DNA of 64,000 nt from contig NZ_JASSUA010000001.1 in assembly GCF_030227115.1 (NCBI RefSeq), positions 1,488,001 through 1,552,000 on the forward strand. Reading direction: 5' to 3'. This document shows positions 27,377-56,773 of this stretch, in pieces; positions within the stretch are counted from its first letter, which is position 1; each line of letters begins with the position of its first letter. The DNA is from Marinobacter sp. SS13-12. GTDB lineage: Bacteria; Pseudomonadota; Gammaproteobacteria; Pseudomonadales; Oleiphilaceae. The position numbers and the translations under genes are program-made. Under the pieces are notes generated by a model. That model was given only the letters and a program-made list of their open reading frames with translations, had not been told where the DNA came from and ran no database searches.

Positions 27377-27421
27377 GACGACATCTTCCGGATGACCCCC
27401 ATATTCGACCCCAGAGCTCTT

Positions 27422-28843: not shown

Positions 28844-28860
28844 TCACACTGTACTGACAA

Positions 28861-28897
28861 AAAAGGGGCTACCAGTTATCTGGCAGCCCCTTTTTTG
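28861..28897. terminator. Bidirectional intrinsic terminator
   Basis: AAAAGGGGCT...CCAG-ttat-CTGG...AGCCCCTTTTTT between the convergent hemN and chemoreceptor genes. GC-rich stem with A run before and T run after, so it works on both strands. Confidence 0.9.
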
Positions 28898-28908
28898 GCT
28901 CCGAGGTC

Positions 28909-30937
28909 TCAGCTGTACGCCGGAACCTTAAACTCATTGGCCAGATCCTGAAGTACCCTCGCCAGTTTTGCCTGCTCTCCGGTCACCTGAGTAATTTCCT
29001 GGGAACCGGTCAGTGTCAGGATGGCTGCCTCGCTAACGGATTCCATATTGCCCGCAAGCTCCCGCGTCACTGACACCTGTTCCTCAGAGGCGGTGGCAAT
29101 CTGTGAGGCCATGTCAGAGATGCTGTTCACGTCGCTGAGTATATTGGCAAACGTCTGTTCCAGCTCCAATGCCTGCTCGCTGGTCTCATTGGCCAGTTTG
29201 TGGCTGGCGGTGATGGAGCGGCTGGCGCTGTCAGTGATATCTTTGAATCCATTTATAATGCCTTCAATTTTGGTTGTGGATTCGTGAGTCTGCCGCGCCA
29301 GGGTCCGTACTTCATCGGCCACCACTGCAAAACCACGGCCATGCTCTCCCGCGCGGGCGGCTTCGATGGCGGCATTGAGGGCAAGCAGGTTGGTCTGGTC
29401 CGCCACCTGGCGAATCACATCCACCACCTCGCTGATCGTGGTGCTGCGGCGTTCCAGCTCCTCAATCACCTCATTGACTTCCTGCACCGAAGTGGCCAGG
29501 GAGCGGATTCTGCGCACACTACCGTGTAAAACTTCCTCGCCGGCGCGGCTTTTTTCCATGGCGCTGCCGGCTGCATCGGCCACTTGCTGGGTATTGCGAG
29601 AGATTTCTTCGGAGGTCGCAGACATCTCCTCGGTTGCAGCGGCAACCTGCTCGATCTGTTGCTGTTGATTCTTTACCTGCCCGGTATTCTGGTCGGCGGT
29701 GGAGCTGGTTTCTTCGGTGGCTGTTGCCAGCTGAACACTGGCCTTGTCGATGTGCTGCAGAGCACTACCGAAACGGCCGAACAGTTCATTGATGGCCTTG
29801 CCAATGGTACCCACCTCATCGGTGCTGGATATGGAAACCTGGCGGGTCAGATCTTTGTTGTCCATGGCAAACCGGACGGCAGCAAGTAGTTCAGCGACCT
29901 GACGGCTGATGGCGCGGATGATAATCACTGTCAGCACCAATACGGAAACAATGGCAGCTAGCGCAACAGTCGACGCAGTGACCAGCTCACCGCGAGCAGT
30001 GGCAACACCGTTGTCGGCCTGCGTCAGAATTTTTTGCAGCTCATCCGTGCGGACCTGGTTGAGACTCTCTATGCGACGAGTAGTGGTCTCAAACCACTTC
30101 GGTGCGTCCAGTGCGTACAAGCCGGCCGGGCTGCTGAACAGGGTTTCACGCATCTCCATAAGTTCCCGGTTAGCAGGTGTTTGTCTGAGGTTTTCAAGAG
30201 AAGTGCTCAGTGCAGCATCGGAAGGGAGCATGTTCAGGGCCTGGTTCAGGTACGAATCCTGCTGCCCACCCAGGGCGGCTATGTTTTGGATGGAGGGCAG
30301 GTCAAAGTCGCCGCTGCGAATGAGTGATGCGCCGGCGGCCCGCTCCCGACCGGCTCGCTCTGTAGTCTCTGCAAGGGCGTAGTAGGCGCTCACTCCCCGG
30401 GGTCAGCTCCGGATCGGTGGCGCGTCGAATGATCAGTGGGATTCGGTCCATTAACCCCATGATAATCGCGGTATAGCGCTTCGCTGATTCGGCGGCGACA
30501 ATGCTTCGCCTGTCCACCGACTGCCGAAGAGAGTTCAGGTCGCTCAGGGCCTGCCGTACTGACTGGATGTTGTCGGTCACGCTGTTGTCGAAGTCGGCGT
30601 GGGCCAGTGCGGTATCAAGTTGTGCCCGGTAATCCCGCAGGCGGGCATCGGTCTGTTGCCGTTGTGTTTCCAGTTCCCGCGTTGACTGTTTGGCGGCATC
30701 CGTTTCCGGCTGGCTGGCAAAGCGAACGGCGGAACGGCCCCGCTCTTTCTGCAGGGTTTCAATCAGTGGGTCACCAATATCAGCCAGCTCCACCATAGTG
30801 CGCAGTTGTCGCATATTGCCAAGTTCATCATAGCTGTTGGCGATAGAGTCGATCGCAAACCAGGCGATAACCACCAATGCCGGCACCACCAGCGTCAGGA
30901 GTTTGCCTCGCATGGAAAGATTGTTGATCAGATTCAT
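28909..30937 (-). pseudogene. NIT-domain methyl-accepting chemotaxis protein, frameshifted
   Basis: Two minus-strand frames join into one 675-residue chemoreceptor if one base is removed from the run CCCCGGGG at 30395-30402; the span is 2029 bases, one more than a multiple of three. The N-terminal frame starts MNLINNLSMRGKLLTL (membrane helix) and continues as a nitrate/nitrite-sensing NIT domain ('DPLIETLQKERGRSAVRFAS'). The second frame, from '[21 protein letters not shown]', has the rest of NIT, a second helix (about residues 320-340), HAMP and the signalling tip '[37 protein letters not shown]'. Either a true single-base insertion or a sequencing error. NIT domains bind nitrate or nitrite, fitting the nitrate-respiration genes nearby. 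Confidence 0.85.
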
Positions 30938-31161
30938 GATTCGTTCTCATCTGTAAAACGTGCGCCCATTGTCCGCAAGGGATGGGGATGGTGGTATTCG
31001 CGTGAGTGGGTAGCTGTGGTGGTAGTTTCGGGCGGGTAAGTCTTTGTAAGTTGGTGTTAGTCTGCTGTTTTTAAGTCAGAAATTCTGGCACTAGGTAATT
31101 GTGCCTGGAGTATTTAATGAGAGGTATACAGAAGCCTGCAGGTGACCTTTCAAAAACCGGG

Positions 31162-31203
31162 CTGACAATGGTCAATGTATCTCCGTGACGTTGCCGCTAG
31201 GCT
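31162..31203 (+). promoter_or_regulatory. FNR/DNR-like box and -10 element of ubiU
   Basis: CTGAC-AATG-GTCAA at 31162-31175, a dyad of FNR/DNR type. TAGGCT at 31198-31203 lies at class II -10 spacing; transcription would start near 31210, 22 bases before the ubiU ATG. The rest of the gap 30938-31161 shows nothing clear. Confidence 0.5.
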
Positions 31204-31231
31204 GCACGTTGTTTCATTCAGCGGAGGGGTT

Positions 31232-32227
31232 ATGGAACTCGTATGCCCGGCCGGCAGTCTGCCGGCCTTGAAAACCGCCGTGGATAATGGCGCTGATGCG
31301 GTCTACTTCGGTTTCCGCGACAGCACCAATGCCCGCCAGTTTGCAGGGCTGAATTTTAATGACAAGCGCGCTGGCGAAGGTATTGAATATGCCCACTCCA
31401 AAGGCAGCCGCGTGTTCTGTGCCATTAACACCTACCCGCAACCGGATGGCTGGGAGCAGTGGAAAGGGGCAGTAGACCGTGCCGCCGGCCTGGGTGTGGA
31501 TGCCATCATCCTGGCCGATATGGGCCTGCTGGATTACGCCGCCAATAAATACCCGCATATCCCCCGGCACCTGTCTGTTCAGGGCTCCGCCACCAGTTAT
31601 GAAGCCCTGTCATTCTACAAGGACAACTTTGATATCCGCCGGGCCGTGTTACCCCGCGTGCTTTCCCTGGACCAGGTCCGGGGTGTGGCAAAACACAGCC
31701 CGGTTGAGCTGGAAGTCTTCGCCTTTGGCAGCCTGTGCATCATGGCAGAAGGCCGCTGTTATCTTTCATCCTACCTGACGGATGAATCCCCCAATACCCG
31801 CGGTGCCTGCTCGCCGGCCAAGGCTGTGCGCTGGCAGGAGACTCCGCAGGGGCTGGAATCGCGCCTGAACGATGTTCTGATTGACCGCTACGGACCGGGA
31901 GAATCTGCCGGTTATCCAACGTTGTGCAAAGGCCGATTCGAGGTTGAAGGCAGTGTTTATCACGCCATTGAAGAGCCGGTCAGCCTGAGCACTCTGGATA
32001 TGTTGCCGAAACTGAAGGAACTGGGTATCAGCGCGGTGAAAATCGAGGGCCGTCAACGCAGTCCAGCTTATATTGCCGATGTAGCCCGCACCTGGCGCCA
32101 TGCCCTGGATAACCTGGAAGCCCGGCCGGATGACTATAAAGTTGATCCGGCCTGGAGAAACACCCTTTCGGGCCTGTCCGAGGGCGGGTTGACCACCCTG
32201 GGCGCCTACCATCGCAAATGGAAATAG
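31232..32227 (+). CDS. ubiU: O2-independent ubiquinone hydroxylation protein UbiU
   Basis: U32 peptidase-like [4Fe-4S] protein of 331 residues that with UbiV hydroxylates the ubiquinone ring without oxygen. 'MELVCPAGSLPALKTAVDNGADAVYFG' is the family start. Cluster cysteines lie in 'GSLCIMAEGRCYLSSYLTDE', 'TRGACSPAK' and 'PTLCKGRF'. GCGGAGGGG sits just before the ATG at 31232; the frame is open further up but lacks a ribosome site. Twelve bases before ubiV. UbiT is coded at 56246 in the same window. Confidence 0.93.
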   Translation: MELVCPAGSLPALKTAVDNGADAVYFGFRDSTNARQFAGLNFNDKRAGEGIEYAHSKGSRVFCAINTYPQPDGWEQWKGAVDRAAGLGVDAIILADMGLLDYAANKYPHIPRHLSVQGSATSYEALSFYKDNFDIRRAVLPRVLSLDQVRGVAKHSPVELEVFAFGSLCIMAEGRCYLSSYLTDESPNTRGACSPAKAVRWQETPQGLESRLNDVLIDRYGPGESAGYPTLCKGRFEVEGSVYHAIEEPVSLSTLDMLPKLKELGISAVKIEGRQRSPAYIADVARTWRHALDNLEARPDDYKVDPAWRNTLSGLSEGGLTTLGAYHRKWK

Positions 32228-32239
32228 GTTCTTCCGATT

Positions 32240-33130
32240 ATGATGAAGTTATCCCTGGGCCCGATTCTGTGGTTCTGGTCCAAGCAGAGTGTTTTTGATT
32301 TCTATGGCAAGGCCGCCGAGTGGCCGTTAGATACCATCTATCTGGGCGAAGCCGTGTGCTCGCGCCGGCGGGAACTTAAGCCGGATGACTGGTTTGATAT
32401 GGCCCGTGACCTGAAAGCCTGCGGTAAGGAGGTGGTGCTTTCTACCCAGACCCTGATTGAATCCGAGGCGGATCTGAGACGCCTGCGCCGGATCTGCGAC
32501 CAGAATGAATTCATGGTGGAGGCCAACGACCAGAGCGCCGTTCAGGTTGCCGTTCGCAATCACATACCATTTATTACCGGCCCTTCCATGAACCTCTACA
32601 ATGTCGCCTCATTGAAAGTCTTGGCAAGGCAGGGGCTGAAGGGTTGGAACCTGCCAGTGGAGCTGGGTAAGGAATCTCTGGAGGAACTCATCAAGGGCCT
32701 GAAAGCAGAGGGCCTGGACTTGCCTGCGGAAGTGTTTGCCTGGGGCTTCCTGCCATTGGCCTGGTCTTCCCGCTGTTTCACTGCCCGGCATTACAACCTG
32801 CCGAAAGACAACTGTGAATTCCGCTGCCTGGAGCATCCGGACGGTATGGAGCTGCGCTCCCGTGAAAGCCAGGAACTGTTCCGGCTGAATGGTATTTCCA
32901 CTCTGTCAGGCTCGCGCTATGACCTGATGCGGGAGCTGCCGGATATGGAACGCATGGGGGTGTCTACCGTGCGCCTGAGCCCGGAACATCTTGGTATGGA
33001 TGAGGTGGTCAAGCGGTTCGATCAGGTGCGCCGTGGTGAGGCACCGGCGACCGATCCGCTGCAGCTGGTGGAGGCGCCACCCTGCAACGGATACTGGTAC
33101 GGCAAGCCGGGAATGGAACTGGTCGGCTAG
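32240..33130 (+). CDS. ubiV: O2-independent ubiquinone hydroxylation protein UbiV
   Basis: U32 family partner of UbiU, 296 residues (usual length). Conserved segments: 'LSLGPILWFWSK', 'YLGEAVCSRRRELK', 'WGFLPLAWSSRCFTARHYNLPKDNCEFRCLEHPDG', the latter giving three of the cluster Cys. Two ATGs are adjacent (32240, 32243). Forms a heterodimer with UbiU and allows ubiquinone synthesis for nitrate respiration. Ends six bases from the convergent cytochrome gene. Confidence 0.93.
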   Translation: MMKLSLGPILWFWSKQSVFDFYGKAAEWPLDTIYLGEAVCSRRRELKPDDWFDMARDLKACGKEVVLSTQTLIESEADLRRLRRICDQNEFMVEANDQSAVQVAVRNHIPFITGPSMNLYNVASLKVLARQGLKGWNLPVELGKESLEELIKGLKAEGLDLPAEVFAWGFLPLAWSSRCFTARHYNLPKDNCEFRCLEHPDGMELRSRESQELFRLNGISTLSGSRYDLMRELPDMERMGVSTVRLSPEHLGMDEVVKRFDQVRRGEAPATDPLQLVEAPPCNGYWYGKPGMELVG

Positions 33131-40370: not shown

Positions 40371-41105
40371 TCAAGTCCACATCTCCATATTTCGATACTC
40401 CACGCCAAGTAACTGCTCCAGGGCAGGGCGATTGAGAATCTGTAGCTGGCTACCCTTCTGCTCTACGAATCCATTTATTTTAAACCGCCCCAAAGTGCGC
40501 GAGACCGTTTCACCCCGTATTCCCAAGCGGGAACCTATTTGTTTTTGATGGCACGGAAGTTTCAGTCTTGTACCGTCTTGCAGGTCACTAAGATACAGAA
40601 GGAACGCAGCCAGTCGTTGTTCGGCGTTACTACCAGTGAAAAAGTCGACCTGGTTCATGTAGGCGTGGGCCTTTTGGCTCATGTGCTGCAGGAGCGCTCG
40701 AGTTAAACCAGGGTTCTTCTGAGCGATCCCCGAAAGCGCGTTTCTTTCGAAGCTGTATGCAATGCCATCTTGGGTACCGCGACCATTCAGAGAAAATACA
40801 GGCATTTTCATAAACATCGAGTAGAGTTCAACGAGTTGGCCGTGTCGATAATAACCAAACAGCTTTTCGTCACCTCCGGGGGTTGCGCGGAATACCTCTA
40901 TTTCGCCTGCAACGATCAGGAAAAAATGATCAGCCACCATTCCCTCAGAAAAAATCGCTTCTCCCTGAGAAAACGCGTGTCTTCGGACATCTTTTAAAAG
41001 CATGGTGACGTCCATCTTACTTAAGCATGCGAATATCGGATCTTCCTGCAAAAGACGTTTCAAAGTTGGATATTCAAAACTATTGGGCGCTGCTGCTATA
41101 TTCAT
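40371..41105 (-). CDS. dnr: Crp/Fnr-family regulator, Dnr-like (NO-responsive)
   Basis: 244 residues. Cyclic-nucleotide-type sensor fold (about 25-150; 'HAFSQGEAIFSEGMVADHFFLIVAGEIEVFR') and C-terminal helix-turn-helix 'QIGSRLGIRGETVSRTLGRF' with the E-x2-SR contact motif of FNR-type proteins. It lacks the N-terminal Cys cluster of FNR/ANR, so it cannot hold their [4Fe-4S] cluster; Dnr-type proteins sense NO through heme. Placed next to nsrR and the nirK cluster. The DNA-contact helix suggests a TTGAT-type target. Confidence 0.8.
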   Translation of the reverse strand: MNIAAAPNSFEYPTLKRLLQEDPIFACLSKMDVTMLLKDVRRHAFSQGEAIFSEGMVADHFFLIVAGEIEVFRATPGGDEKLFGYYRHGQLVELYSMFMKMPVFSLNGRGTQDGIAYSFERNALSGIAQKNPGLTRALLQHMSQKAHAYMNQVDFFTGSNAEQRLAAFLLYLSDLQDGTRLKLPCHQKQIGSRLGIRGETVSRTLGRFKINGFVEQKGSQLQILNRPALEQLLGVEYRNMEMWT

Positions 41106-41114
41106 GATCGACCC

Positions 41115-41543
41115 TCAAGGTCCCACCATGCGTAGGCGCTCCACCATATGGGAATCGTCCAACATCATGGCGAGTGTATATTCATTGAGCGTGGCAACAA
41201 AAGCGTCGCGTGCAGCATTGACTGCACTTTTGATGGTGCAGCCCCCTTGGAGCGGGCACTCTTGTTTGTTGCAGTCAATGATTTCCATGTTCTCCTCCAT
41301 TTCCAGTACAAATTGGCCTAATCGAACCAATTCGGGAGAACGGCTGAGCATAACTCCACCGGACTTGCCCTGGGTTGTTTGTACATACCCAAGAGTGCTC
41401 ATACGATGAATAACTTTGCGTAAGTGTTCCTGAGAGATGCCGTAGGCTGTTGCTATTTCCCGCCGGGGGACTGACCTGCCTCGTCGGGTTCCGACATAGA
41501 CCAGGACCCTCAAACCAAAATCTGTATACGTTTTTAATTGCAT
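41115..41543 (-). CDS. nsrR: NsrR, Rrf2-family NO-sensing repressor
   Basis: 142 residues. 'MQLKTYTDFGLRVLVYVGTRRG' and the winged helix 'IATAYGISQEHLRKVIHRMSTLGYVQTTQGKSGGVML' are NsrR-like. Three Cys ligands for the iron-sulfur cluster lie in 'IIDCNKQECPLQGGCTIKSA' (C-x5-C-x5-C). Start 41543 has AGGTG upstream. NO nitrosylates the cluster and releases DNA. In Nitrosomonas NsrR represses the ncg-nirK cluster, and the same genes follow here. Confidence 0.9.
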   Translation of the reverse strand: MQLKTYTDFGLRVLVYVGTRRGRSVPRREIATAYGISQEHLRKVIHRMSTLGYVQTTQGKSGGVMLSRSPELVRLGQFVLEMEENMEIIDCNKQECPLQGGCTIKSAVNAARDAFVATLNEYTLAMMLDDSHMVERLRMVGP

Positions 41544-41578
41544 CGTTTCACCTGGATGACAGCTGCATAAAATCATAC

Positions 41579-41597
41579 GATACATTTTGTATACATC
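41579..41597. promoter_or_regulatory. NsrR-like site upstream of nsrR (autoregulation)
   Basis: GATGTAT-N5-ATGTATC on the minus strand, 36 bases before the nsrR start. The left half is perfect for NsrR, the right half imperfect (4 of 6 core bases). Confidence 0.4.
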
Positions 41598-41691: not shown

Positions 41692-42642
41692 TCATCGAAT
41701 CAATATGTTTCCTTTCTTGCCAAGTGAAGGGTCCGCCCCTTCAGTATTCATCAAGACGCTTATGCCACCGTTCAGAGCGCCTTTCATCTGGTGATCTACG
41801 ATGGCGTTGTTGGTGTCACGGTCAGAAGGACTGACCAGATCAAGAGTAGCTCCGGACGCCGCCGGTACAAGGTACGTTTGAATCCCTTTTTCGAGGTTGA
41901 ATGGGTGACCACTGTTAAAAACGCGTTCCCAAATCCCGGCAATCGGATGGAGGGCAACGGATTTATTGACGTGGGCATTCACGAAGTAGAACCGAACTCT
42001 TTCCCCAGGTTCGGATTGCAGCATCAAGCTGGCATTTGGGTCATGCAGGGGGTCATAGTGAAACGCTTTGCCATTCACTAAAGTGCCCTTCCAACCGTCG
42101 TCTTCCAGCATCTGTTCTGCTGTGGTGCCAGGCTTAAACAGATCGCTGTGGACGATGACGTACTCACGATCCGGTTTGGGGTAGTTTTCGTTATATCCCT
42201 CTTTGGGATCGACAATAATAACGCCATACATACCGCGGCCTATATGCTCAACCATAGGGTCGGTGCCACAATGGTAAATGAACACACCTGGGCTGGTTGC
42301 TTTAAACTTGAAGTGCTTTTTCTCCCCAGGTTTCACTGCTTCAAATTCGTCCAGTACGTCAACAACGGCGGCATGGAAGTCCATAGAGTGACTTTGTTTA
42401 TTGCCCTCCTCATTGATAAGAGTGAAGTCGACGACGTCTCCCTCTTTTACGCGAACAACGGGACCGGGAACGGTTCCCCCGAACGTCCACATGGTTTGCA
42501 TCGTTCCCTTGTTATCTACTGCGATTTCTTTCTCAATGACCGGGATCTCGATCTTCACCACTTCAGCCATCGCGGGAGATGCCAGTATTGCAGCCGCTGC
42601 GATAGCCGCGGTAGCCTGCTTTATTGATCTGGAAATAGACAT
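41692..42642 (-). CDS. nirK: Copper-containing nitrite reductase (NirK, Nitrosomonas/AniA-like class)
   Basis: Periplasmic enzyme of 316 residues reducing nitrite to NO. Signal peptide ends at 'SPAMAEV'. Domain 1 has 'SHSMDFHAA' (type-1 His, catalytic Asp, type-2 His) and 'YHCGTDPMVEHIGRGMYG' (type-2 His, type-1 Cys, His, Met). Domain 2 has 'ALHPIAGIWERVF' (catalytic His) and 'AIVDHQMKGAL' (type-2 His). The Cys-to-His spacing is that of AniA-type enzymes, one residue shorter than classical NirK. AAGGAG precedes the ATG. Last gene of the operon, 24 bases after the multicopper oxidase. Repression by NsrR is inferred from the upstream operator. Confidence 0.88.
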   Translation of the reverse strand: MSISRSIKQATAAIAAAAILASPAMAEVVKIEIPVIEKEIAVDNKGTMQTMWTFGGTVPGPVVRVKEGDVVDFTLINEEGNKQSHSMDFHAAVVDVLDEFEAVKPGEKKHFKFKATSPGVFIYHCGTDPMVEHIGRGMYGVIIVDPKEGYNENYPKPDREYVIVHSDLFKPGTTAEQMLEDDGWKGTLVNGKAFHYDPLHDPNASLMLQSEPGERVRFYFVNAHVNKSVALHPIAGIWERVFNSGHPFNLEKGIQTYLVPAASGATLDLVSPSDRDTNNAIVDHQMKGALNGGISVLMNTEGADPSLGKKGNILIR

Positions 42643-42666
42643 CTTTCTCTCCTTTGGTTTTACGTA

Positions 42667-43785
42667 TTAGTTGGACTGATTTCTGCCGCGGCTCCTGCCA
42701 CGACCTGAGGATTCATCGTTTTCAATTTTCTGGGCCTCGAAGCCCTCGTGATTGAAGAGACCGCTGCCTTCGGTCAAGCTTTGTGTGTAGTAAAAGTCGG
42801 GGTCGTAGGATTTGTCCTTCCAGACATACCAGTCATCATCTTCAATGCTGTCGTACTCGACGATCATGACCGCACCGCCAGGTACTTTTCCGTTGTTACT
42901 TGTGTGGTGTTCTATGTGGTCATGGGCAATCCAGCGCCCAGGGTTGTCCATCCTGACGATCACGTCGTACCGCTCGCCCTGATTGATATCCACGACGTCC
43001 GCCCAGAAGGGAGATTCCAATGGCAGGCCGTCTTTATGGGTGACGAGCATGTCGTGTCCATGCAAGTGAAACGCTGTCTCAATTCCAGCTGCAAATAAGC
43101 GCAGACGAAGGACATCACCTTCTTTAACTCTTAAGGGTTGAGTATTCGGAAAGGATTGGCCGTTGATCGAAAAATAAGTCAGCTTCTCAGCAGGGTGCCC
43201 TCCTTTGCCGAATGTCTGAGCGACTTCTTCATTCCAACCTGAAAACATCAGAATGGCTTCTTTGGTAACTTCGCTTTCGATTGGCGCTGGTTCCTTGGGG
43301 TCCACAATCAGGGGGCCCCACATTCCGCGCAATCCAACATGTTCCGGGACATTCACGTGGCAGTGATACCAGAGGCTTCCGGGCTTATCGGCAACGAACT
43401 TGTAAGTGAACGAGTCGCCGGGCTGTACCGCCTGTTGGGTGACGTTCGGGACCCCGTCATTCCGCCACGTACCGGTCTGGTAGATGCCATGCCAGTGGAT
43501 GGTATGGGCCAGAGTTGTCATGTTGGTCAACTCTACCTCTACTGTGTCTCCCTCTTTGACCCGTATGAGCGGCGCCGGTACCTGACCGTTATAGGCCCAA
43601 ACCTTTGCTTTGAATCCTGGCGCCACTTCTTTTTCCCGCTCCTCGATAGTCATTTGAAACTGGTGCGTTTCTGACCACGCTGGTGTGGCAATCCCCATTG
43701 AGACAATGGCAGCGATAGCAAGAGCGATCCGGGAGGCTTGCGGAGTGCCCGCTGCGCAGAGCGGCTTTGCCGTAGTTAATGTCAT
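42667..43785 (-). CDS. ncgA: Two-domain multicopper oxidase (NcgA-like)
   Basis: Secreted oxidase of 372 residues with signal peptide ending near 'ATPAWSET'. The four HxH copper motifs of the trinuclear site are HWHG, HCHV, HLHG and HDH. The type-1 copper lies only in domain 1 ('WYHCHVNVPEHVGLRGMWG'), as in the two-domain oxidase of Nitrosomonas. The C-terminus is an acidic, then Arg/Gly/Ser-rich tail. Start 43785 has AAGGAG six bases upstream; the TTG at 43800 does not. Role in NO/nitrite tolerance is known only from Nitrosomonas mutants; the substrate is unknown. Confidence 0.85.
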   Translation of the reverse strand: MTLTTAKPLCAAGTPQASRIALAIAAIVSMGIATPAWSETHQFQMTIEEREKEVAPGFKAKVWAYNGQVPAPLIRVKEGDTVEVELTNMTTLAHTIHWHGIYQTGTWRNDGVPNVTQQAVQPGDSFTYKFVADKPGSLWYHCHVNVPEHVGLRGMWGPLIVDPKEPAPIESEVTKEAILMFSGWNEEVAQTFGKGGHPAEKLTYFSINGQSFPNTQPLRVKEGDVLRLRLFAAGIETAFHLHGHDMLVTHKDGLPLESPFWADVVDINQGERYDVIVRMDNPGRWIAHDHIEHHTSNNGKVPGGAVMIVEYDSIEDDDWYVWKDKSYDPDFYYTQSLTEGSGLFNHEGFEAQKIENDESSGRGRSRGRNQSN

Positions 43786-43879
43786 CGTATACTCCTTCAA
43801 TGTAAAAAATGCACATCGTTTGGCTCGTTATTAAATCCGGTATTGCCAGCTTGAAAAATCCCTCCTGGATATGGGGTTA

Positions 43880-45152: not shown

Positions 45153-46316
45153 TTATCGTTTTCTCATGATCATCGGCAGGTAACTGAAGCCTCCAGTCGG
45201 GAAAACCGCCCGTTCAGGTCGATCCTCGGGCGCTGGTTCCAGTGTGTCGACAGCGGAAAGAAATTCTTCCATCAGCACCCTGAGCTCCATCCTGGCCAGC
45301 GGCGCCCCAGGGCAAACGTGAACGCCCGCACCGTAAAGCAGGTTATGGTCACGGTTCTTCTGTGGGCAAAACGCATCGGGGTCGCCGAAGACTTTTTCGT
45401 CCCGGTTGGCGGATGCCCACAGAATGGTGACTTTCTCGTCTGCGGGAATACGTCTTCCGCCAATGTCCACATCCCGGGTGGTAACCCGTCGGTTAGACAT
45501 CAGCGGCGCGTCCATACGCAGTATTTCATCGATAGCGTCCGGCAGGGCAACGGTATCGTTGGCAAGGCTCTGTTTGAGGTCGCGGTGTTCAGCCAGGTAA
45601 CTCAGGAGAATGGAGACGCTGGAGCTGATGGTGCCCAGTTCACCGACCGTCCAGTTCCGCAGAAGGCTTGTGAGCTCTTCATCGGTCATGGTGCGGCCAT
45701 TGACGGTCTCTTCCATCAGCGAGGTGGTGACGTCTCTCGGGGCGTTGGTTCCGGCCTGCCGTCGGGTTTCCAGCAGATTGTGAATATAGCCGTCGAACTC
45801 ATGGGCAACTTCAGCCATGGCCTGCCGGTCACTGGCGAGCGTAGCCTGGTGGTTTTTCAGTACCCATTCTCTCAATGGTTCGTGAAGGGAGTCGGGCCAC
45901 CCCATAAAGGCGCACTGTATCTGCAGGGCAAAGGCTCTGCTGAATTTTTCGACCACATCGAAGGGCTGACCGTCATGCAGGCTATTGACAAGTTTGCGGG
46001 CAATGCTCCGACAGGTTGGCTCGAATTCGCTCATTGCCTGTTGAGAGAAATAGGGCTCGATGACCTTTCGATAAGGGGTGTGTTCAGGTGGGTCCATGCC
46101 ATTGGGGACCGAAAGATGACTGGATGCCGCACTGCTGAATGTCTGGTGATCTTCCAGAACTCGCATGACATCGTCATGCCTGAATAACGTCCAGTGCTGA
46201 TAGTCGCTCCAGGCAACCGGGCACTGAGCGCGCATGCTATCGTAGGCCCGTATCTGGTCACCCAGAACCTCGTTGGCGCGGGGGTTCCAGTCAGCTGTGC
46301 GGGGATCGTCTGCCAT
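45153..46316 (-). CDS. Cytochrome P450
   Basis: Soluble heme monooxygenase of 387 residues. Heme-binding loop 'LLYGAGVHVCPGAPLARMEL' with Cys ligand (about residue 337; Tyr replaces the usual Phe at the loop start), K-helix ExxR in 'IDEILRMDAP' region, 'FDVVEKFSRAFALQIQCAFMG' earlier. The I-helix reads 'NWTVGELGTISSSV', without the usual AGxDT acid-alcohol pair, so oxygen activation may differ. No redox partner gene nearby. GAGG precedes the start at 46316. Substrate unknown. Confidence 0.88.
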   Translation of the reverse strand: MADDPRTADWNPRANEVLGDQIRAYDSMRAQCPVAWSDYQHWTLFRHDDVMRVLEDHQTFSSAASSHLSVPNGMDPPEHTPYRKVIEPYFSQQAMSEFEPTCRSIARKLVNSLHDGQPFDVVEKFSRAFALQIQCAFMGWPDSLHEPLREWVLKNHQATLASDRQAMAEVAHEFDGYIHNLLETRRQAGTNAPRDVTTSLMEETVNGRTMTDEELTSLLRNWTVGELGTISSSVSILLSYLAEHRDLKQSLANDTVALPDAIDEILRMDAPLMSNRRVTTRDVDIGGRRIPADEKVTILWASANRDEKVFGDPDAFCPQKNRDHNLLYGAGVHVCPGAPLARMELRVLMEEFLSAVDTLEPAPEDRPERAVFPTGGFSYLPMIMRKR

Positions 46317-46436
46317 TGCTAATCCTCGAAACAAAAATATGTTTCTTCAGATTAACAGAGCGCCGGGTTGTCTTCTTGAAGATAAATCAATTGGTGCCTG
46401 GCCAGATAATCGGAATCAGCAAGTTGTTGTCGTTAA

Positions 46437-50964: not shown

Positions 50965-52002
50965 TTGTCAACGCGACTTACCGAGTTCAGTCACGGAGCC
51001 GGCTGCGGTTGTAAAATTGCGCCGGATGTCCTGGACCGAATTCTTCACACTACAACCCCTGATTTTCACGATCCGCGACTTCTGGTCGGCAATGCCAGCC
51101 GGGATGACGCTGCCGTCATGGATGTTGGCAGTGGTCTGGGCATCATCAGCACCACGGATTTTTTTATGCCCGTGGTGGACGATCCCTATGACTTCGGCCG
51201 GATTGCGGCTGCAAATGCCATCAGTGACGTCTATGCCATGGGCGGGAAACCGTTGATGGCAATCGCCATACTGGGCTGGCCGGTAAACCAGCTGGCGCCG
51301 GAGATCGCCTCCCGGGTAATCGAGGGTGGCCGGGCAGTATGCGCCGATGCCGGAATAGCGTTGGCTGGGGGGCACAGCATCGATTCGCCGGAACCGATCT
51401 TCGGGTTGGCCGTTACCGGACAGGTGCCGGTGAATCGAATCGTGCGTAACGATACCGCCCGGCCCGGCGACCTGCTGTACCTGACCAAGCCGATTGGCGT
51501 GGGAATTCTGACCAGCGCACTGAAAAAGCATCGGGTCAGCGAGGCTGATCTGGCTGTCGCCGTGGAAACCATGTGCACTTTGAACAAAGTAGGTGAGATC
51601 TTTGCTTCCGTGGACGAGGTACATGCCATGACCGATGTTACCGGCTTTGGTCTCGCCGGGCATTTGATGGAGATCTGCCGTGGGAGCGGTGTTGGCGCCA
51701 CGTTAAACCGGAGTTCAGTGCCGCAGCTGCCGAACCTCGCACGCTACATCGATTTGGACTGCATTCCCGGTGGCACCCATCGAAATGCCGCATCCTTGGG
51801 CGACGCCTTCGAGGGCCTGACGGATCAGGACAAGACGCTGCTTTGCGATCCACAGACCAGCGGAGGGCTGCTGGTTTGTGTCGCCGAGCAGGGCCGAGCC
51901 AGTTTTGAGGAAATGGCCAGGGATTACGGGCTGACGCTCTATCCGTTCGGCCAGTTGCATGAGCGTGGTTCAGGTGAGTCGCTGGTTCAGGTTATTGACT
52001 GA
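50965..52002 (+). CDS. selD: Selenide, water dikinase
   Basis: Makes selenophosphate for selenoproteins and selenouridine tRNA; 345 residues. The active-site loop '[16 protein letters not shown]' carries catalytic Cys (not Sec). '[37 protein letters not shown]' and '[10 protein letters not shown]' are ATP/metal-binding hallmarks. Start is TTG at 50965 with AAAGGA seven bases upstream. 25 bases after the GGDEF-EAL gene. The stop overlaps the convergent DHODH-like gene by 11 bases. selA and selU are not in the window. Confidence 0.92.
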
Positions 52003-52861
52003 GTTTCCAGCCAATGTCAGGCCCTTCGAACACAAGCGCATTGTGGAGTTGTACCAGATCGGCACCGGCATGGAGCCGGTCCTGATAGTTCTGGCGCGAA
52101 CACACGCCGCCATTGGTCAGCAAAGCTGAGCTCCCTTGGAGATGACGCTGGCAGGCCTCGATAGTGCGACAGGTGCTGGCCTGAAGTACAGGGTCCTGCC
52201 ACTGGCGGTAGTGGGCACTGGTGACTGGTTTGCCGAAGTCGAAGCTGACGAGAACACCATCGACACCCTGGGAGGCGAGGTAGGGCACGACGTTGCAGGC
52301 ATCTTCATTTCCCGGTCTTACCCGAAGCTTGTAAACAACGGGGCAGAATTTCCGGGTTAGGCTTTGCAGTGCCTGCTGGGCGTCCTGCAATCGCAGCAAA
52401 TTGCTGTGCAGCTGCTGGAAGGGAATTGCCTGCTGAAGCCAGTCAGGCGCTATGGTCAGGTAGTCTGCTGTTAGCCAGGCCTTCTCAATCAGACGAATGA
52501 GTTGACCCGTTTCCTGCTGCGGCGATACCGGAGTTGTTGCCGCCAGCCGAACCCCCAGCCGGGTACCGAGTAATACTTTGGGGTCCTCGGCAGGGAGTCT
52601 GTCTGGCCAGCTTCCCCGGCTCCAACTGCCCAGTTCAATCGCACCAAAGCCCAGGTTACCAGCACGCCGCCCCAGCCTTCCGGCCCGGTCAAAACCTGCG
52701 GCAATGCCCAGGCGGTTGGGGAAGGAAAGCCCCATACAGTTGACGGGAGTAACACCCTCCGCCAGGCGCGACCATGCAGGCAAAGGGGTGCTGGCCCGGT
52801 TGCAGGCGTTCACGAAAGCCTGTTCCCGGATGCTGGCCGGCCTGGTGAGAAGACTAGCCAT
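51992..52861 (-). CDS. Dihydroorotate-dehydrogenase-like TIM-barrel protein lacking the catalytic loop
   Basis: 289 residues. The start of the barrel matches class 2 DHODH ('[36 protein letters not shown]'), and so does the FMN-phosphate site near the end ('[35 protein letters not shown]'). The catalytic Ser loop (NxSSPNT) is replaced by '[10 protein letters not shown]' and the NTT motif by 'SFDFGKP'; the substrate Lys is Arg. So it probably binds FMN but does not oxidise dihydroorotate. Overlaps the SerC-like gene by eight bases; last gene of the pqqADE operon. Confidence 0.7.
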
Positions 52862-53945
52862 GATGCTTGCGGAAGCTGATCATGAAAGAGGCCAGGGCTG
52901 CGACCGCGGCGTCCGACTGGGCATTGTAGAGACTGGCACGAAGCCCTCCGGTGTGGCTGTGCCCCGCAAGGTTCATCAGCCCCATTGTCTCAGCCTCGGC
53001 GAGAAACCGTTGCTGATGGCTTTTATCCCGGGTGCCAAAACACACGTTCATAATGGAGCGGTGCCCAGGTATTACCGGGCAGTAGAAGAAGTCGTCTTCG
53101 TCGATGATGCGATAGATTGCCTGGCTCTGGGTGATATTGCGGAAGTGAAGCGCCTCGACACCGCCCTGTTTCTCAATCCAGTCCAGCATCAGGTGAACCA
53201 GGTAAATGCCGAACATCAGTGGTGTGTTGATGCGGTTCTGGCGTTCAATCTGCTGCTGATAGTTGAACACCGTCGGGGTTTCCGGCCGTGCCTGTCCCAA
53301 CAGGTCCTCCCGGATGATGGCAATCACCAGGCCCGTGGGGCCGAGGTTTTTCTGGGTTCCTGCGTAAATCATGCCGTAGCGTTCGATATCGACAGGGCGT
53401 GACAGAAACTCGGAGGTCATATCCGCTATCAGGGGGATATCGCCACAATCCGGATCTCCGGGGAACTGGACACCATTTGCGGTCTCGTTGGGCGTTATGT
53501 GGCAATAGTGAAGGTCTTCATCCAGCGCCCATTCGCAAACCGCAGGCACACGATCAAAACCACTGCCCCGGGCACTGGCCACTACGAGGCTTCGACCGTA
53601 CCGGCGCCCTTCCTCAAGTGCCCTTGCCGACCAGTGGCCCGTTTCGACGTAGCCGGCCGTGGCCGTTGGCGGTAACAGGTTCAGCGGAACCAGTGAGAAT
53701 TGGGCCGATGCGCCACCCTGAAGAAAAACCACCTGATAGTGATCCGGTACTGCCAGCACTGCCTTGATCTGATGCCGGGTCGTGTCCATCAGGGCCTTGA
53801 ATTCATCACCGGTGAATGGCGCTTCCAGTAATGAATAACCCAGCCCCTGCCAGTCGGCCAGGCTCGCCTTCGCTCGTTCCAGCACCTCCGGTGGCAGGGT
53901 GGCCGGCCCTGCGGCGAAGTTGAATACGTTGCTCCTGCGGCTCAT
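52854..53945 (-). CDS. SerC-like class V aminotransferase with altered substrate pocket
   Basis: 363 residues, full length for phosphoserine aminotransferase. The PLP machinery is kept: Lys in 'IYAGTQKNLGPTGL', Trp in 'ETGHWSAR', Thr in 'TPNETANGV', Asp in 'IADMTSEFLSRP', and 'INTP'. Residues binding the phosphate/carboxylate in E. coli SerC are changed: 'SHRGKEF' is 'PFTGDEF' (His-Arg to Phe-Thr) and 'GHRVVGGMRAS' is 'GHSHTGGLRAS' (Arg to Ser). It is therefore unlikely to be the serine-pathway enzyme. Starts by TGATG coupling with the upstream membrane protein. Automated pipelines will call it serC. Confidence 0.8.
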   Translation of the reverse strand: MSRRSNVFNFAAGPATLPPEVLERAKASLADWQGLGYSLLEAPFTGDEFKALMDTTRHQIKAVLAVPDHYQVVFLQGGASAQFSLVPLNLLPPTATAGYVETGHWSARALEEGRRYGRSLVVASARGSGFDRVPAVCEWALDEDLHYCHITPNETANGVQFPGDPDCGDIPLIADMTSEFLSRPVDIERYGMIYAGTQKNLGPTGLVIAIIREDLLGQARPETPTVFNYQQQIERQNRINTPLMFGIYLVHLMLDWIEKQGGVEALHFRNITQSQAIYRIIDEDDFFYCPVIPGHRSIMNVCFGTRDKSHQQRFLAEAETMGLMNLAGHSHTGGLRASLYNAQSDAAVAALASFMISFRKHHG

Positions 53946-54451
53946 CAGAACAGCGCCAGCCCGTGGCTCCCCGCAGCCATAAAAAAGATCAGCGGAAAGG
54001 ACAGGATGGTGTTGGTTCGGGATGACAGGAATGTGATTCGAGAACAGCGGATCCGCTCGGCGGCCGGTGCCGGTACAAAGCCCAGCACTTTCTTCTGATG
54101 GGGCCAGAGTACGAACCAGAGGTTCAGTACCATGATGATGCCGATCCAGGCCCCGACCCCGATCACCGCATGGTAGCCCTGAAGCATCAGGGCGTCGGCA
54201 AGAATACCGCGGTTCCAGAGCATCAGGGCGCCAGACACCAATACCACCAGGGACGCATAGCGAAAGGTGCCGTGTTCCTGGCGCATGCGTCGGGTCAGAT
54301 CGGAGGAGCGTTCGCTTCCCTCATCAGGCTCAATACGTAAGGGAATGAACCTCGGAGTTTTGACCACATTGGCGTAGTTATGGCCAATCCAGATCAGCGC
54401 AAACACGATATGGAGCCAGCGCAGGGCGATATCCATCAATGTCCAGCTCAT
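53945..54451 (-). CDS. Integral membrane protein resembling the PuuD/urate-oxidase membrane domain
   Basis: 168 residues with four or five helices. 'DIALRWLHIVFALIWIGHNYANVV' matches the start of PuuD-type membrane domains, with conserved His residues; 'YHAVIGVGAWIGIIMVLNLWFVLWPHQKK' follows. The C-terminal cytochrome domain of PuuD is absent. GGAGG lies six bases before the start, within the pqqE end; one base separates the two coding regions. Possibly a heme- or quinone-linked electron carrier for the operon; that is inference. Confidence 0.7.
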   Translation of the reverse strand: MSWTLMDIALRWLHIVFALIWIGHNYANVVKTPRFIPLRIEPDEGSERSSDLTRRMRQEHGTFRYASLVVLVSGALMLWNRGILADALMLQGYHAVIGVGAWIGIIMVLNLWFVLWPHQKKVLGFVPAPAAERIRCSRITFLSSRTNTILSFPLIFFMAAGSHGLALF

Positions 54452-54452
54452 A

Positions 54453-55586
54453 TCAGACCTCCGTGGGCACCCAGCCCACATTGCGGGCGATAAGCCTGGA
54501 GTGTTCCTGCTTTGTGGCAAGTGCCCTGGTCACGGCTTCCTGGACAATGTGATGATGGGGCGATTTGCTGCAGGCCGGGTCTGCATTGGCGGCATCGCCA
54601 GTCAGCAGCATGGCCTGGCAGCGGCAGCCGCCGAAATCCTGCTCTTTTTCGGAGCAGCTGCGGCAGGGCTCTTTCATCCAGCTGTCTCCCCGATAGAGGT
54701 TGAAACTCTCGGACTCGTGCCAGATCCAGCTGAGGTCATGGTCGCGAACACCGGGAAAGTCCAGGCCGGGCAGGGAGCGGGCTTGCGAACAGGGCAGTAC
54801 CACACCGTCCGGTGCGATGGTCAGGTGAATGCTGCCCCAGCCATTCATGCAGGCCTTGGGGCGGCCTTCGTAGTAATCAGGGATGACAAAGAAAATGGTC
54901 ATTTTGTCGCCGAGCTGCTTGCGGGCTTCGGCAACCTGGTGCTCGGCCTTTTCCAGGGCTTCCCGGGTGGGCATCAGTTGGTCCCGGTTCACCAGGGCCC
55001 AGTTGTAATACTGCACGTTGGCCAGCTCGAGGTATTCAACGCCGATGTCGGCGGCCAGAGCGATGATGTCCGGTACCTGGTGGATGTTCAGGCTGGAGAT
55101 CGGCACGTTCAGAACCATGGGGAAACCAAGGGCCTTGATCTCCCGCGCCATGCCGATTTTCTTTTCGTAGCAGTCAACTCCCGCAAGCCAATGGGCCGTT
55201 TGTGGTTCGCTCGACTGGAAACCGAGCTGGATATGACGGAGGCCCGCCTTCTTCAGGTTCTCCAGCCGCTTGCGGGTAAGGCCAATGCCGGACGTAATCA
55301 GATTGGTGTAGTACCCCAGGTCGTTGGCTTCTGCGACCAGCTCTTCCAGATCCTTGCGCAAGGTGGGCTCGCCACCGGAGAAACCGATCTGCATGGCGCC
55401 CATCTTGCGGGCATCATGAATCACCGTTTTCCATTCGGCAGTCGTCAGCTCGTCCTGGTGGGCATCGAGGTCGGTCGGGTTACTGCAGAATGCGCACTTG
55501 AGGGGGCACTTGTAGGTCAGTTCCAGAAGCAGCCAGACCGGGTTGCCCTGGCCATCAAGATTGAGGTTGGATCCAGCCTTTGCCAT
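54453..55586 (-). CDS. pqqE: PqqE, radical SAM PqqA peptide cyclase
   Basis: 377 residues. Joins Glu and Tyr of PqqA by a carbon-carbon bond. Radical SAM motif 'YKCPLKCAFCSNP' (CxxxCxxC, about 27-34), 'GFSGGEPTLRKDLEEL', and a C-terminal SPASM region with Cys in 'PCSQARSLPGL', 'EPCRSCSEKEQDFGGCRCQA'. GGAGG precedes the ATG. Overlaps pqqD by 32 bases. The clear similarity to true PqqE makes a PQQ-type reaction likely. Confidence 0.92.
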   Translation of the reverse strand: MAKAGSNLNLDGQGNPVWLLLELTYKCPLKCAFCSNPTDLDAHQDELTTAEWKTVIHDARKMGAMQIGFSGGEPTLRKDLEELVAEANDLGYYTNLITSGIGLTRKRLENLKKAGLRHIQLGFQSSEPQTAHWLAGVDCYEKKIGMAREIKALGFPMVLNVPISSLNIHQVPDIIALAADIGVEYLELANVQYYNWALVNRDQLMPTREALEKAEHQVAEARKQLGDKMTIFFVIPDYYEGRPKACMNGWGSIHLTIAPDGVVLPCSQARSLPGLDFPGVRDHDLSWIWHESESFNLYRGDSWMKEPCRSCSEKEQDFGGCRCQAMLLTGDAANADPACSKSPHHHIVQEAVTRALATKQEHSRLIARNVGWVPTEV

Positions 55587-55848
55587 GGCACACCTCCAGA
55601 AACTGGTGAACGCGGGGTTCGATGAATTCAGGTTGTTCGCAGAACAGTTCGGACAGCTGGTAAACGATGTCGTCGACCGTGTTCGTACCGTTGCAGCGGG
55701 TCAGGATTTCGCCGGCGGTGGGGTTCAGCTTGACGATGCCTTCGGGATACATCAGCACATGGGCTTGCTGGGACTCTTCCCACCGGAACAAGAAGACCGG
55801 GGCGATGCTGAATCGGTGCAGGCTGTTGTGATTGTTTGAGTCAGCCAT
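55555..55848 (-). CDS. pqqD: PqqD, PqqA-binding chaperone
   Basis: 97 residues. 'MADSNNHNSLHRFSIAPVFLFRWEESQQAHVLMYPEGIVKLNPTAGEIL' style start and 'CNGTNTVDDIVYQL' match PqqD, which presents the PqqA peptide to PqqE. Start at 55848 has GAGG upstream. Overlaps pqqE by 32 bases. Confidence 0.9.
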   Translation of the reverse strand: MADSNNHNSLHRFSIAPVFLFRWEESQQAHVLMYPEGIVKLNPTAGEILTRCNGTNTVDDIVYQLSELFCEQPEFIEPRVHQFLEVCHGKGWIQPQS

Positions 55849-55929
55849 AGGGTGCCTCACAGGTTGAATGGGCCACACTCTGCAGCGGGTCCCGCAGCAG
55901 GGACTGCTTGCGGGAACAGCACGGGATGG
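55849..55929 (-). other. pqqA-pqqD gap with strong hairpin; pqqB and pqqC absent
   Basis: On the minus strand TCCCGC-a-AGCAG-tcc-CTGCT-GCGGGA forms a stable hairpin, which could lower expression of pqqDE relative to pqqA. A frame through the gap is open and ends TGA inside the pqqD start (ATGGCTGA), but it has no ATG and resembles nothing I recognise. Confidence 0.5.
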
Positions 55930-56004
55930 TCAGCGAACGTAAACGTAGGCTGTTACCTCAAAGCCGAGTCTAAGGTCTTTGAAATCCGGGTCGGTCCACT
56001 TCAT
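55930..56004 (-). CDS. pqqA: PqqA, precursor peptide
   Basis: 24-residue peptide beginning MKWTDPDFKDLRLGF and ending EVTAYVYVR. It holds the Glu-x3-Tyr pair (Glu16, Tyr20) that PqqE crosslinks. GGAGA lies upstream of the ATG at 56004. 81 bases separate it from pqqD, where pqqB and pqqC usually sit. Confidence 0.92.
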   Translation of the reverse strand: MKWTDPDFKDLRLGFEVTAYVYVR

Positions 56005-56026
56005 GGTAATTCTCCAGCATCTATAA

Positions 56027-56064
56027 TGAATGTTTTTGGCCGGTTTTATTGCCGGCCACATTCA
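56027..56064 (-). promoter_or_regulatory. Structured 5' leader of pqqA
   Basis: Stem TGGCCGG / CCGGCCA (56037-56043, 56052-56058) nested in TGAATG / CATTCA, about 23 bases before the pqqA ATG. No T run after it on the minus strand, so more likely a stabiliser or regulatory leader than a terminator. The rest of the gap to 56245 shows nothing definite. Confidence 0.45.
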
Positions 56065-56245
56065 CTGTAGGCCCCGCGAAACAGGTCGATAAATGGTACC
56101 TTTGGCCTAATTTTCTGGGGCTTTGGTATCGATTATCCGGTTTCATGATGAAATTGGCTGACAAGCCTGCAGAGCGTTACGTCAGCCATTTTCTATAGAA
56201 GTATCATTATTGATTGTTATCAAGAGGGAGGGGGAGCTGGAAGGG

Positions 56246-56743
56246 CTATTTTTGACGGAACAGAAACCGGCGGATCGTGAAATCCCACTCGAGACTATCA
56301 AGTAGATTTTTCAGCCCCAGCCCGAGCTCTGTGTCCCCTTCGATAACCAGCCGGCGTTGAAAGAAGAGTTGGTCGGGGTCCTGCCGTCGCTCTGCCAGCG
56401 TTCTGAATGCGCCCAGGGAACCCCGGATAGTGGCCTCCCCCGGGCCATCAATAATGCGTAGGCGGCCCGCCCAGAAGCCGATGGTAATGCCCGGCTGTCC
56501 ACCGTTTGCTTCCAGGCGGATCCGGCGCCCTTCGAAATCATCGAATTCACCATCCTTGATGGCGGTTGCAAACAATCGGTTGAGCGGAGCTTCCGCAGCC
56601 AGTTGCTTGAACGGAACCGGAATACGGCGGTCTATGGCGTCCAGCACCGGGAAAGGCGAGGGCAAGTACTCACTGAGAACCGCCAGGGATTGGTCGAGAA
56701 GTGGGCCGTTCAGCGATGCAATGGGGGGTAGGGAAAATGCCAT
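56246..56743 (-). CDS. ubiT: UbiT, SCP2-type anaerobic ubiquinone accessory protein
   Basis: 165 residues. SCP2 lipid-binding domain: 'GFWAGRLRIIDGPGEATIRGSLGAFRTL' and the hallmark 'LFFQRRLVIEGDTELGLGLKNLLDSLEWD'. Binds ubiquinone precursors for UbiU-UbiV, coded 23 kb away. CCGGAG precedes the start at 56743. It has its own FNR-type promoter just downstream of narL. Confidence 0.88.
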   Translation of the reverse strand: MAFSLPPIASLNGPLLDQSLAVLSEYLPSPFPVLDAIDRRIPVPFKQLAAEAPLNRLFATAIKDGEFDDFEGRRIRLEANGGQPGITIGFWAGRLRIIDGPGEATIRGSLGAFRTLAERRQDPDQLFFQRRLVIEGDTELGLGLKNLLDSLEWDFTIRRFLFRQK

Positions 56744-56773
56744 GGTGTACTCCGGACGGTCAGAAACCCGCCC

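What the first reader, a model, noticed from the sequence alone, without database searches (positions are those of the whole stretch)
51992..56004. pqqA-pqqD-pqqE operon without pqqB/pqqC, fused by overlaps to a membrane protein, a SerC-like and a DHODH-like gene
Seen: six minus-strand genes with gaps of 81, -32, 1, -1 and -8 bases. pqqB and pqqC are absent and replaced by an 81-base hairpin gap. Known: PqqA/D/E make the crosslinked Glu-Tyr peptide; PqqB and PqqC finish PQQ. Inferred: either B and C lie elsewhere and the extra genes support PQQ-linked metabolism, or the PqqE product is finished by a different route (aminotransferase plus flavoprotein plus membrane protein), giving a PQQ-like but different cofactor.
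Basis: partly seen in the sequence, partly recalled or inferred. Interest (0 to 1): 0.85.

Follow-up and report, generated by a model that had tools for sequence, protein, structure and literature searches.

The report
Second, denitrification-linked PQQ gene cassette
A marine bacterium that already has the full set of genes for the redox cofactor PQQ carries a second, partial set joined to three altered enzyme genes inside its nitrate-respiration gene region, probably so that it can make PQQ when no oxygen is present, an idea already in print but untested.

Summary
But pqqB and pqqC are in the genome: a complete pqqABCDE operon lies about 290 kb away. The window holds a second, divergent set whose PqqE forms one clade apart from canonical PqqE. 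In 66 loci with this PqqE, MemP is found in 66, SerC-like in 64, DHODH-like in 62. The cassette sits in an anaerobic island (hemN, ubiUVT, narL, narG, nosZ), has the window's only perfect FNR-type box upstream (kept in 25 of 62) and goes with nosZ (39 of 47 cassette genomes, 9 of 31 controls), though clade explains part of that. The SerC-like and DHODH-like proteins keep cofactor motifs but lose their parents' substrate residues. Best reading: an oxygen-independent branch of PQQ synthesis. PMC12423496 already proposed this, as speculation, for the same gene order in Hyphomicrobium. The evidence here supports it and does not prove it. A different cofactor is not excluded but less likely.

The parts
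55930..56004 (-). pqqA2, 24-residue precursor peptide with E-x3-Y and the tail EVTAYVYVR
   Evidence: EVTAY in 62 of 62 and EVTAYVYVR in 54 of 62 cassette sequences
55849..55929 (-). 81-base pqqA2-pqqD2 gap with a hairpin
   Evidence: fold z -2.26
55555..55848 (-). pqqD2, peptide chaperone
54453..55586 (-). pqqE2, radical SAM/SPASM maturase, 56% identical to the genome's canonical PqqE
   Evidence: own clade
53945..54451 (-). MemP, 168-residue 4-helix membrane protein related to the membrane domain of PuuD, no cytochrome c domain matched
   Evidence: Pfam PF06181; model pLDDT 87; 35 invariant columns in 22 rows
52854..53945 (-). SerC-like PLP protein, K199 kept, S-H-R replaced by P43-F44-T45
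51992..52861 (-). DHODH-like (class 2) protein, FMN-side motifs kept, orotate-side residues not kept
56210..56223 (.). perfect FNR/ANR-type palindrome, 205 bases between it and the pqqA2 start codon; only perfect match in the window

Best explanation
This is a second, specialised PQQ operon for growth without oxygen. PqqA2, PqqD2 and PqqE2 make the same Glu-Tyr crosslinked peptide as the canonical set (inferred from kept motifs). Peptidases encoded elsewhere release it. The three further proteins then stand in for the two O2-using finishing enzymes: MemP, kin of the membrane domain of the cytochrome c urate oxidase PuuD, would hydroxylate or oxidise the tyrosine ring and pass electrons into the respiratory chain (the job of PqqB); the DHODH-like flavoprotein would dehydrogenate the N-containing, carboxylated ring and pass electrons to quinone (the job of PqqC); the SerC-like PLP protein would act on an alpha-amino group of the intermediate. 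Shown here: the cassette, its conservation, its island, its FNR-type box, its link with nosZ and pqqC, and the changed active sites. Inferred: every catalytic step, and that the product is PQQ.
For: Conserved unit: in 66 loci picked by likeness to PqqE2, MemP 66, PqqD2 65, SerC-like 64, DHODH-like 62, PqqA2 61. One PqqE2 clade, 65 of 65 rows, support 100/100, against 17 canonical rows. Anaerobic setting: HemN, UbiU, UbiV, UbiT, NarL, a NarX-like kinase and NarG in the window, NosZ about 18 kb away. FNR-type box within 300 bases of pqqA2 with at most one mismatch in 25 of 62 (17 perfect), against 16 of 1240 random windows of the same loci and 14 of 1240 shuffles, and 2 of 33 canonical pqqA (4 further loci dropped for want of a pqqA). 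nosZ in 39 of 47 distinct cassette genomes and 9 of 31 pqqC-bearing genomes without it; over Marinobacteraceae and Pseudomonadaceae together CMH p about 2e-5. The SerC-like and DHODH-like proteins keep cofactor motifs but lose parent substrate residues, and a separate SerC is in the genome. The organism has a PQQ alcohol dehydrogenase gene. In Hyphomicrobium the pqqA/D/E genes of the same kind of cluster are transcribed less, along with denitrification genes, in two regulator mutants (PMC12423496, section 2.9 read).
Against: No activity, transcript or metabolite was seen here. nosZ follows clade: 10 of the 18 cassette Pseudomonadaceae tested are of the Stutzerimonas clade, and within Marinobacteraceae alone 8 of 8 against 6 of 8 is not significant (p 0.23), six nosZ-bearing genomes with pqqC doing without the cassette. 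37 of 62 pqqA2 upstream regions lack a box at one mismatch or less, among them all 21 Stutzerimonas-clade loci (clade by the tree and by name). All cassette genomes tested but one MAG also have a pqqC match, so none shows that the cassette suffices alone. L065 and L079 lack SerC-like; L079 has no DHODH-like match in the 5 kb after MemP. PuuD itself is reported only from aerobic bacteria (PMC4562309, passages). The role of the PLP protein is a guess.
Confidence: 0.6

Rival explanations
1. A low-oxygen supply copy: PqqA2, D2 and E2 only make more crosslinked precursor, PqqB and PqqC still finish PQQ with traces of O2, and the three extra genes do something accessory (precursor release, electron delivery, repair or export).
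For: pqqC matches in 47 of 48 cassette genomes tested. In Motiliproteus and Billgrantia campisalis the only PqqE found is the cassette's while pqqB and pqqC remain, so D2/E2 must be able to feed B/C if these make PQQ.
Against: Does not explain why three changed enzyme-like genes stay in the same order (62 to 66 of 66 loci each; order), nor why MemP is so invariant (35 invariant columns in 22 rows).
Confidence: 0.2
2. One reading: the cassette finishes the crosslinked peptide to a PQQ-like but different cofactor, made alongside PQQ.
For: PqqA2 has its own tail, EVTAYVYVR in 54 of 62, where the canonical peptides found read EVTMY, EVTLY or EITMY (the search pattern allowed only M or L before the Tyr). 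The finishing genes have no counterpart in the canonical operon, and the SerC-like and DHODH-like proteins have changed pockets.
Against: E-x3-Y and the PqqE cysteines are kept. In Motiliproteus pqqB-pqqC and what I recognise as a PQQ alcohol dehydrogenase flank the cassette. I did not search for an enzyme that would use a new cofactor.
Confidence: 0.15
3. Ordinary duplication with chance neighbours: SerC and PyrD copies happen to sit next to a spare pqqADE.
For: Both are common housekeeping families.
Against: Same order over Gamma-, Beta- and Alphaproteobacteria (classes recalled from the family names), overlapping frames and lost parent active sites.
Confidence: 0.02

Closest known systems
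pqqAED-puuD-serC-pyrD cluster of Hyphomicrobium denitrificans (Hden_0548-0553), PMC12423496
   Same: Same six kinds of gene, second to a complete pqqABCDE, linked to denitrification; the authors already suggest O2-independent PQQ synthesis and list Hyphomicrobium nitrativorans, Halomonas, Stutzerimonas, Methylophaga and Azoarcus (section 2.9 read)
   Different: Marinobacter is not named in that section; here the cassette stands in a hemN-ubiUVT-nar-nos island behind an FNR-type box, and the active-site, tree, box and nosZ comparisons were made here
Canonical pqqABCDE operon
   Same: pqqA, pqqD, pqqE above curated cut-offs
   Different: No pqqB or pqqC; three other genes follow; PqqE2 a separate clade
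PuuD, membrane cytochrome c urate oxidase
   Same: Pfam Urate_ox_N match, 45.9 bits; the 2015 paper already notes short 4-helix relatives without the cytochrome in other gene contexts (PMC4562309, passages)
   Different: 168 residues, no cytochrome c domain matched; stands between pqqE and a SerC-like gene
UbiU/UbiV/UbiT and HemN: O2-independent replacements of O2-using cofactor steps
   Same: Same idea, same genomic island in this window
   Different: Other proteins, other cofactors

Membership tests
PQQ biosynthesis (pqqA/D/E) | PqqA, PqqD, PqqE models above curated cut-off | tested here: met
   TIGR02107 35.3/20, TIGR03859 81.2/46, TIGR02109 515.6/381.35; a second PqqD model, NF002535, is missed, 87.2/101
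PQQ biosynthesis (pqqA/D/E) | E-x3-Y in PqqA; CxxxCxxC and SPASM cysteines in PqqE (roles recalled) | tested here: met
   (aligned to the own canonical PqqE)
Complete canonical PQQ operon | pqqB and pqqC in the same operon | tested here: not met
   absent from the locus, present about 290 kb away
Phosphoserine aminotransferase SerC | sequence family and PLP lysine | tested here: met
   NF003764 433.1/253; K199 invariant in 20 rows; but TIGR01364 is missed, 403.1/443.6
Phosphoserine aminotransferase SerC | S-H-R and G-H-R residues that bind the substrate phosphate (role recalled) | tested here: not met
   aligned to 4xk1, S-H-R is P-F-T and GHR is GHS; P43 and F44 invariant in 20 rows
Dihydroorotate dehydrogenase class 2 (PyrD) | curated PyrD models | tested here: not met
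   best 81.4 bits against 418; TIGR01036 76.6/200
Dihydroorotate dehydrogenase class 2 (PyrD) | fold | tested here: met
   model pLDDT 88; best PDB match E. coli PyrD 1f76, E 8e-16, TM 0.72 by query length
PuuD urate oxidase | 8-helix membrane domain plus C-terminal cytochrome c | tested here: not met
   168 residues, no cytochrome domain matched, four long helices plus short ones in the model
Haem b 4-helix membrane cytochromes | fold and haem ligands | tested here: inconclusive
O2-independent PQQ synthesis cluster (proposed in PMC12423496) | pqqADE-puuD-like-serC-pyrD, next to a separate full pqq operon in a genome with denitrification genes | tested here: met
O2-independent PQQ synthesis cluster (proposed in PMC12423496) | PQQ made without O2 and without PqqB/PqqC | not testable with these tools
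   needs mutants and LC-MS

The most novel reading that the evidence does not exclude
MemP is a quinone- or cytochrome-linked membrane hydroxylase that puts oxygen on a tyrosine ring without O2, and the DHODH-like protein is a flavin dehydrogenase that replaces the O2-using oxidase PqqC, so that bacteria have a complete O2-independent route to PQQ, switched on by FNR-type regulators together with anaerobic haem and ubiquinone synthesis.
Probability: 0.42. Interest if true: 0.85.

Novelty: new member of a known kind. Interest (0 to 1): 0.62.

Why it matters
PQQ synthesis is said to need O2, and a 2024 paper argues that PQQ enzymes are therefore of limited use in strict anoxia (PMC11102522, passages), while Hyphomicrobium denitrificans grows on methanol with nitrate, where its methanol dehydrogenase needs PQQ (PMC12423496, passages). 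A dedicated cassette would settle this and would offer two new kinds of enzyme. It also warns that MemP relatives are often auto-named 'urate hydroxylase PuuD' (names) although this one stands in a PQQ operon.

Tried and rejected
Rejected: that pqqB and pqqC are missing from the genome. Rejected: that the 81-base hairpin replaces genes. Set aside: the f37 group as matched controls for Halomonadaceae; the family is unnamed and, in the two of its genomes that I looked at, the PQQ proteins are not closest to Halomonas or Billgrantia, so the three-strata test (p 6e-7) gives way to the two-strata test (p 2e-5). Not used: G010 (L028), which first looked like a genome with PqqE2 only, but both its pqqC copies end at contig ends. 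G373 and G069 repeat G002 and G027 by place and are counted once. G037, a MAG, has the cassette and no pqqC match; it may be incomplete. Order scan: 81 of 390 genomes match the MemP profile, only 4 above 280 bits; the other 77 (75-93 bits) I take for a wider PuuD-like family. Six phylum matches at 125-138 bits have no pqq match within 1.5 kb. Foldseek gave no PDB match for MemP at E 0.001. The PqqA motif pattern over the genome gave 18 matches against 17 for the reversed control and told nothing. No sigma-70-type promoter was found in the cassette region. misread the frame of the Motiliproteus pqqD remnant; one search corrects it, and its tail has no significant PqqE match. Paper searches: in an open-access library only; (at least 4 of pqq, puud, serc, pyrd, pqqe) lists one paper, PMC12423496.
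Full report
Observation. PqqA, PqqD and PqqE pass curated models; the next three are a 168-residue membrane protein (called MemP here; Pfam Urate_ox_N, the PuuD membrane domain), a SerC-like PLP protein, and a DHODH-like protein that fails every curated PyrD cut-off. The 81-base gap folds better than most shuffles (z -2.26).

Whole genome. The window's genome (4.64 Mb, 10 contigs, 99.99% complete by the tool) has one pqqB, one pqqC and two PqqE above cut-off. The canonical pqqABCDE lies at C1 about 1,247,000-1,250,200, the cassette at C1 1,539,992-1,544,004. The two PqqE are 56% identical. A PQQ alcohol dehydrogenase gene is present, and a second SerC, the stronger match, lies on contig C3. 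The closest PqqE2 found is from Marinobacter denitrificans, 95%; the search may leave out records of the window's own genome.

Conservation. The genome-contig search found 152 relatives and kept 80 loci. By tblastn I set aside 14 that are canonical pqqBCDE without MemP (L082, L084-L096), leaving 66. In these, profile searches find PqqE2 in 66, MemP in 66, PqqD2 in 65, SerC-like in 64, DHODH-like in 62, and tblastn finds PqqA2 in 61. Of the four without DHODH-like, L063 and L064 have under 640 bases left after the SerC-like gene, L066 about 1.2 kb, and L079 about 5 kb after MemP. The usual order is A-D-E-MemP-SerC-DHODH. These loci were chosen by likeness to PqqE2, so they show that the cassette travels with this PqqE, not how common it is. 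In a sample of the order, MemP over 280 bits is in 4 of 390 genomes, and in a phylum sample in 2 of 398. A protein search gave 931 MemP relatives at E 1e-30 among 7996 scored, 120 listed. In the tree of 82 PqqE rows, the 65 cassette rows form one side of a branch with 100/100 support against 17 canonical rows (partial L020 and L083 left out).

Link with PQQ. Of 49 genomes reached through loci, one (G043) is a canonical control; of the 48 with the cassette, 47 have a pqqC match (46 above cut-off; G047 a fragment) and G037, a MAG, has none. In the order sample 4 of 4 cassette genomes have pqqC, where 89 of 390 do overall. Most cassette genomes also have a second PqqE; G010, G012, G017, G037, G040 and G041 show one only. 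G010 is not safe (contig ends). In G017 (Motiliproteus MSK22-1) the order is A2-D2-E2-MemP-SerC-DHODH-pqqB-pqqC, followed by a pqqD remnant with a 27-residue match, 78% identical to canonical PqqD; upstream is what I recognise as a PQQ alcohol dehydrogenase (sequence, name recalled). In G012 (Billgrantia campisalis) a pqqA-pqqB-pqqC stretch has no D or E match in the 6 kb after it. In G040 (L077) the cassette's E, MemP, SerC-like and DHODH-like genes are followed by pqqB, pqqC, pqqA and pqqD. So the cassette's D and E probably can feed PqqB and PqqC, which argues that they make the same crosslink as the canonical pair.

Link with life without oxygen. In the window: HemN 27392-28843, UbiU 31175-32227, UbiV 32240-33130, an FNR-like regulator 40371-41105 and an NsrR-like one 41115-41585 (both under cut-off), a NirK-like protein under cut-off 41692-42642, UbiT within 56246-56761, NarL above and a NarX-like kinase under cut-off, and NarG from 60924; NosZ follows in the next 18 kb. 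In G000-G005 and G355 cassette and nosZ are about 18-21 kb apart. A perfect TTGATN4ATCAA lies at 56210-56223; it is the only perfect match in 64 kb, expected 0.09, and 9 of 100 shuffles have one anywhere. Within 300 bases upstream of pqqA2, 25 of 62 sequences have it with at most one mismatch, 17 perfect; random windows of the same loci (which can include the real box) give 16 of 1240 and shuffles 14 of 1240. Canonical pqqA gives 2 of 33, the own canonical pqqA not among them (4 of 37 loci dropped, and the start codon taken is too far inside for many). Fisher p for 25/62 against 2/33 is 3e-4, without regard to kinship. Counted from its first base the box stands 219 bases before pqqA2 in the window and 173-185 in the Pseudomonas and Halomonadaceae loci that have it. 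None of the 21 Stutzerimonas-clade loci has it at that level. nosZ is in 39 of 47 distinct cassette genomes tested and 9 of 31 controls with pqqC and no cassette (counts by family). Marinobacteraceae: 8 of 8 against 6 of 8 (p 0.23). Pseudomonadaceae: 17 of 18 against 2 of 13. The two together give CMH p about 2e-5. Shared ancestry is not removed by this test.

Prior work. PMC12423496 (passages; section 2.9 in full) describes pqqAED-puuD-serC-pyrD in Hyphomicrobium denitrificans. Its pqq genes Hden_0551-0553 are transcribed less in two regulator mutants, and the authors speculate that the final PQQ steps in the absence of O2 are encoded in the same unit. They list further denitrifiers with the cluster and give Klebsiella pneumoniae and Pseudomonas aeruginosa, which have only canonical genes and make no PQQ during anaerobic growth, as counterexamples. 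I had set down the same reading from the window's context before seeing this paper (note), but the published idea is theirs.

Verdict. A real, conserved cassette and a new member of a kind proposed in print in 2025. I hold O2-independent PQQ finishing at 0.6, a supply copy with accessory genes at 0.2, a different cofactor at 0.15. I found no report that shows any step of the chemistry (searches, in an open-access library only).

Noticed in passing
window 27392-33130 and 56246-56761: HemN, UbiU, UbiV and UbiT, the O2-independent haem and ubiquinone genes, share this stretch with the cassette and nar genes: an island of anaerobic cofactor synthesis.
   Followed up: partly
window 45153-46334 (-): A cytochrome P450 gene, an O2-using enzyme type, lies inside the denitrification region.
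   Followed up: no
window 41692-43800 (-): Two multicopper proteins side by side; the first is NirK-like but well under the curated NirK cut-off (179 of 296 bits).
   Followed up: no
L106:4788-4997 (-): Motiliproteus MSK22-1: a canonical pqqD remnant after pqqC with a 27-residue PqqD match, no canonical PqqE found in the genome, and what looks by eye like the S9-peptidase gene next to it.
   Followed up: partly
G037 (L072): An alphaproteobacterial MAG with the cassette, a single PqqE and no pqqC match; important if its genome proved complete.
   Followed up: partly
L065 and L079: Bradyrhizobium and Paramagnetospirillum variants in the order D-E-A-MemP without a SerC-like gene; only L065 has a DHODH-like match.
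   Followed up: partly
window 56005-56209: 205 bases lie between the FNR-type box and the pqqA2 start, which would leave a long untranslated leader.
   Followed up: no
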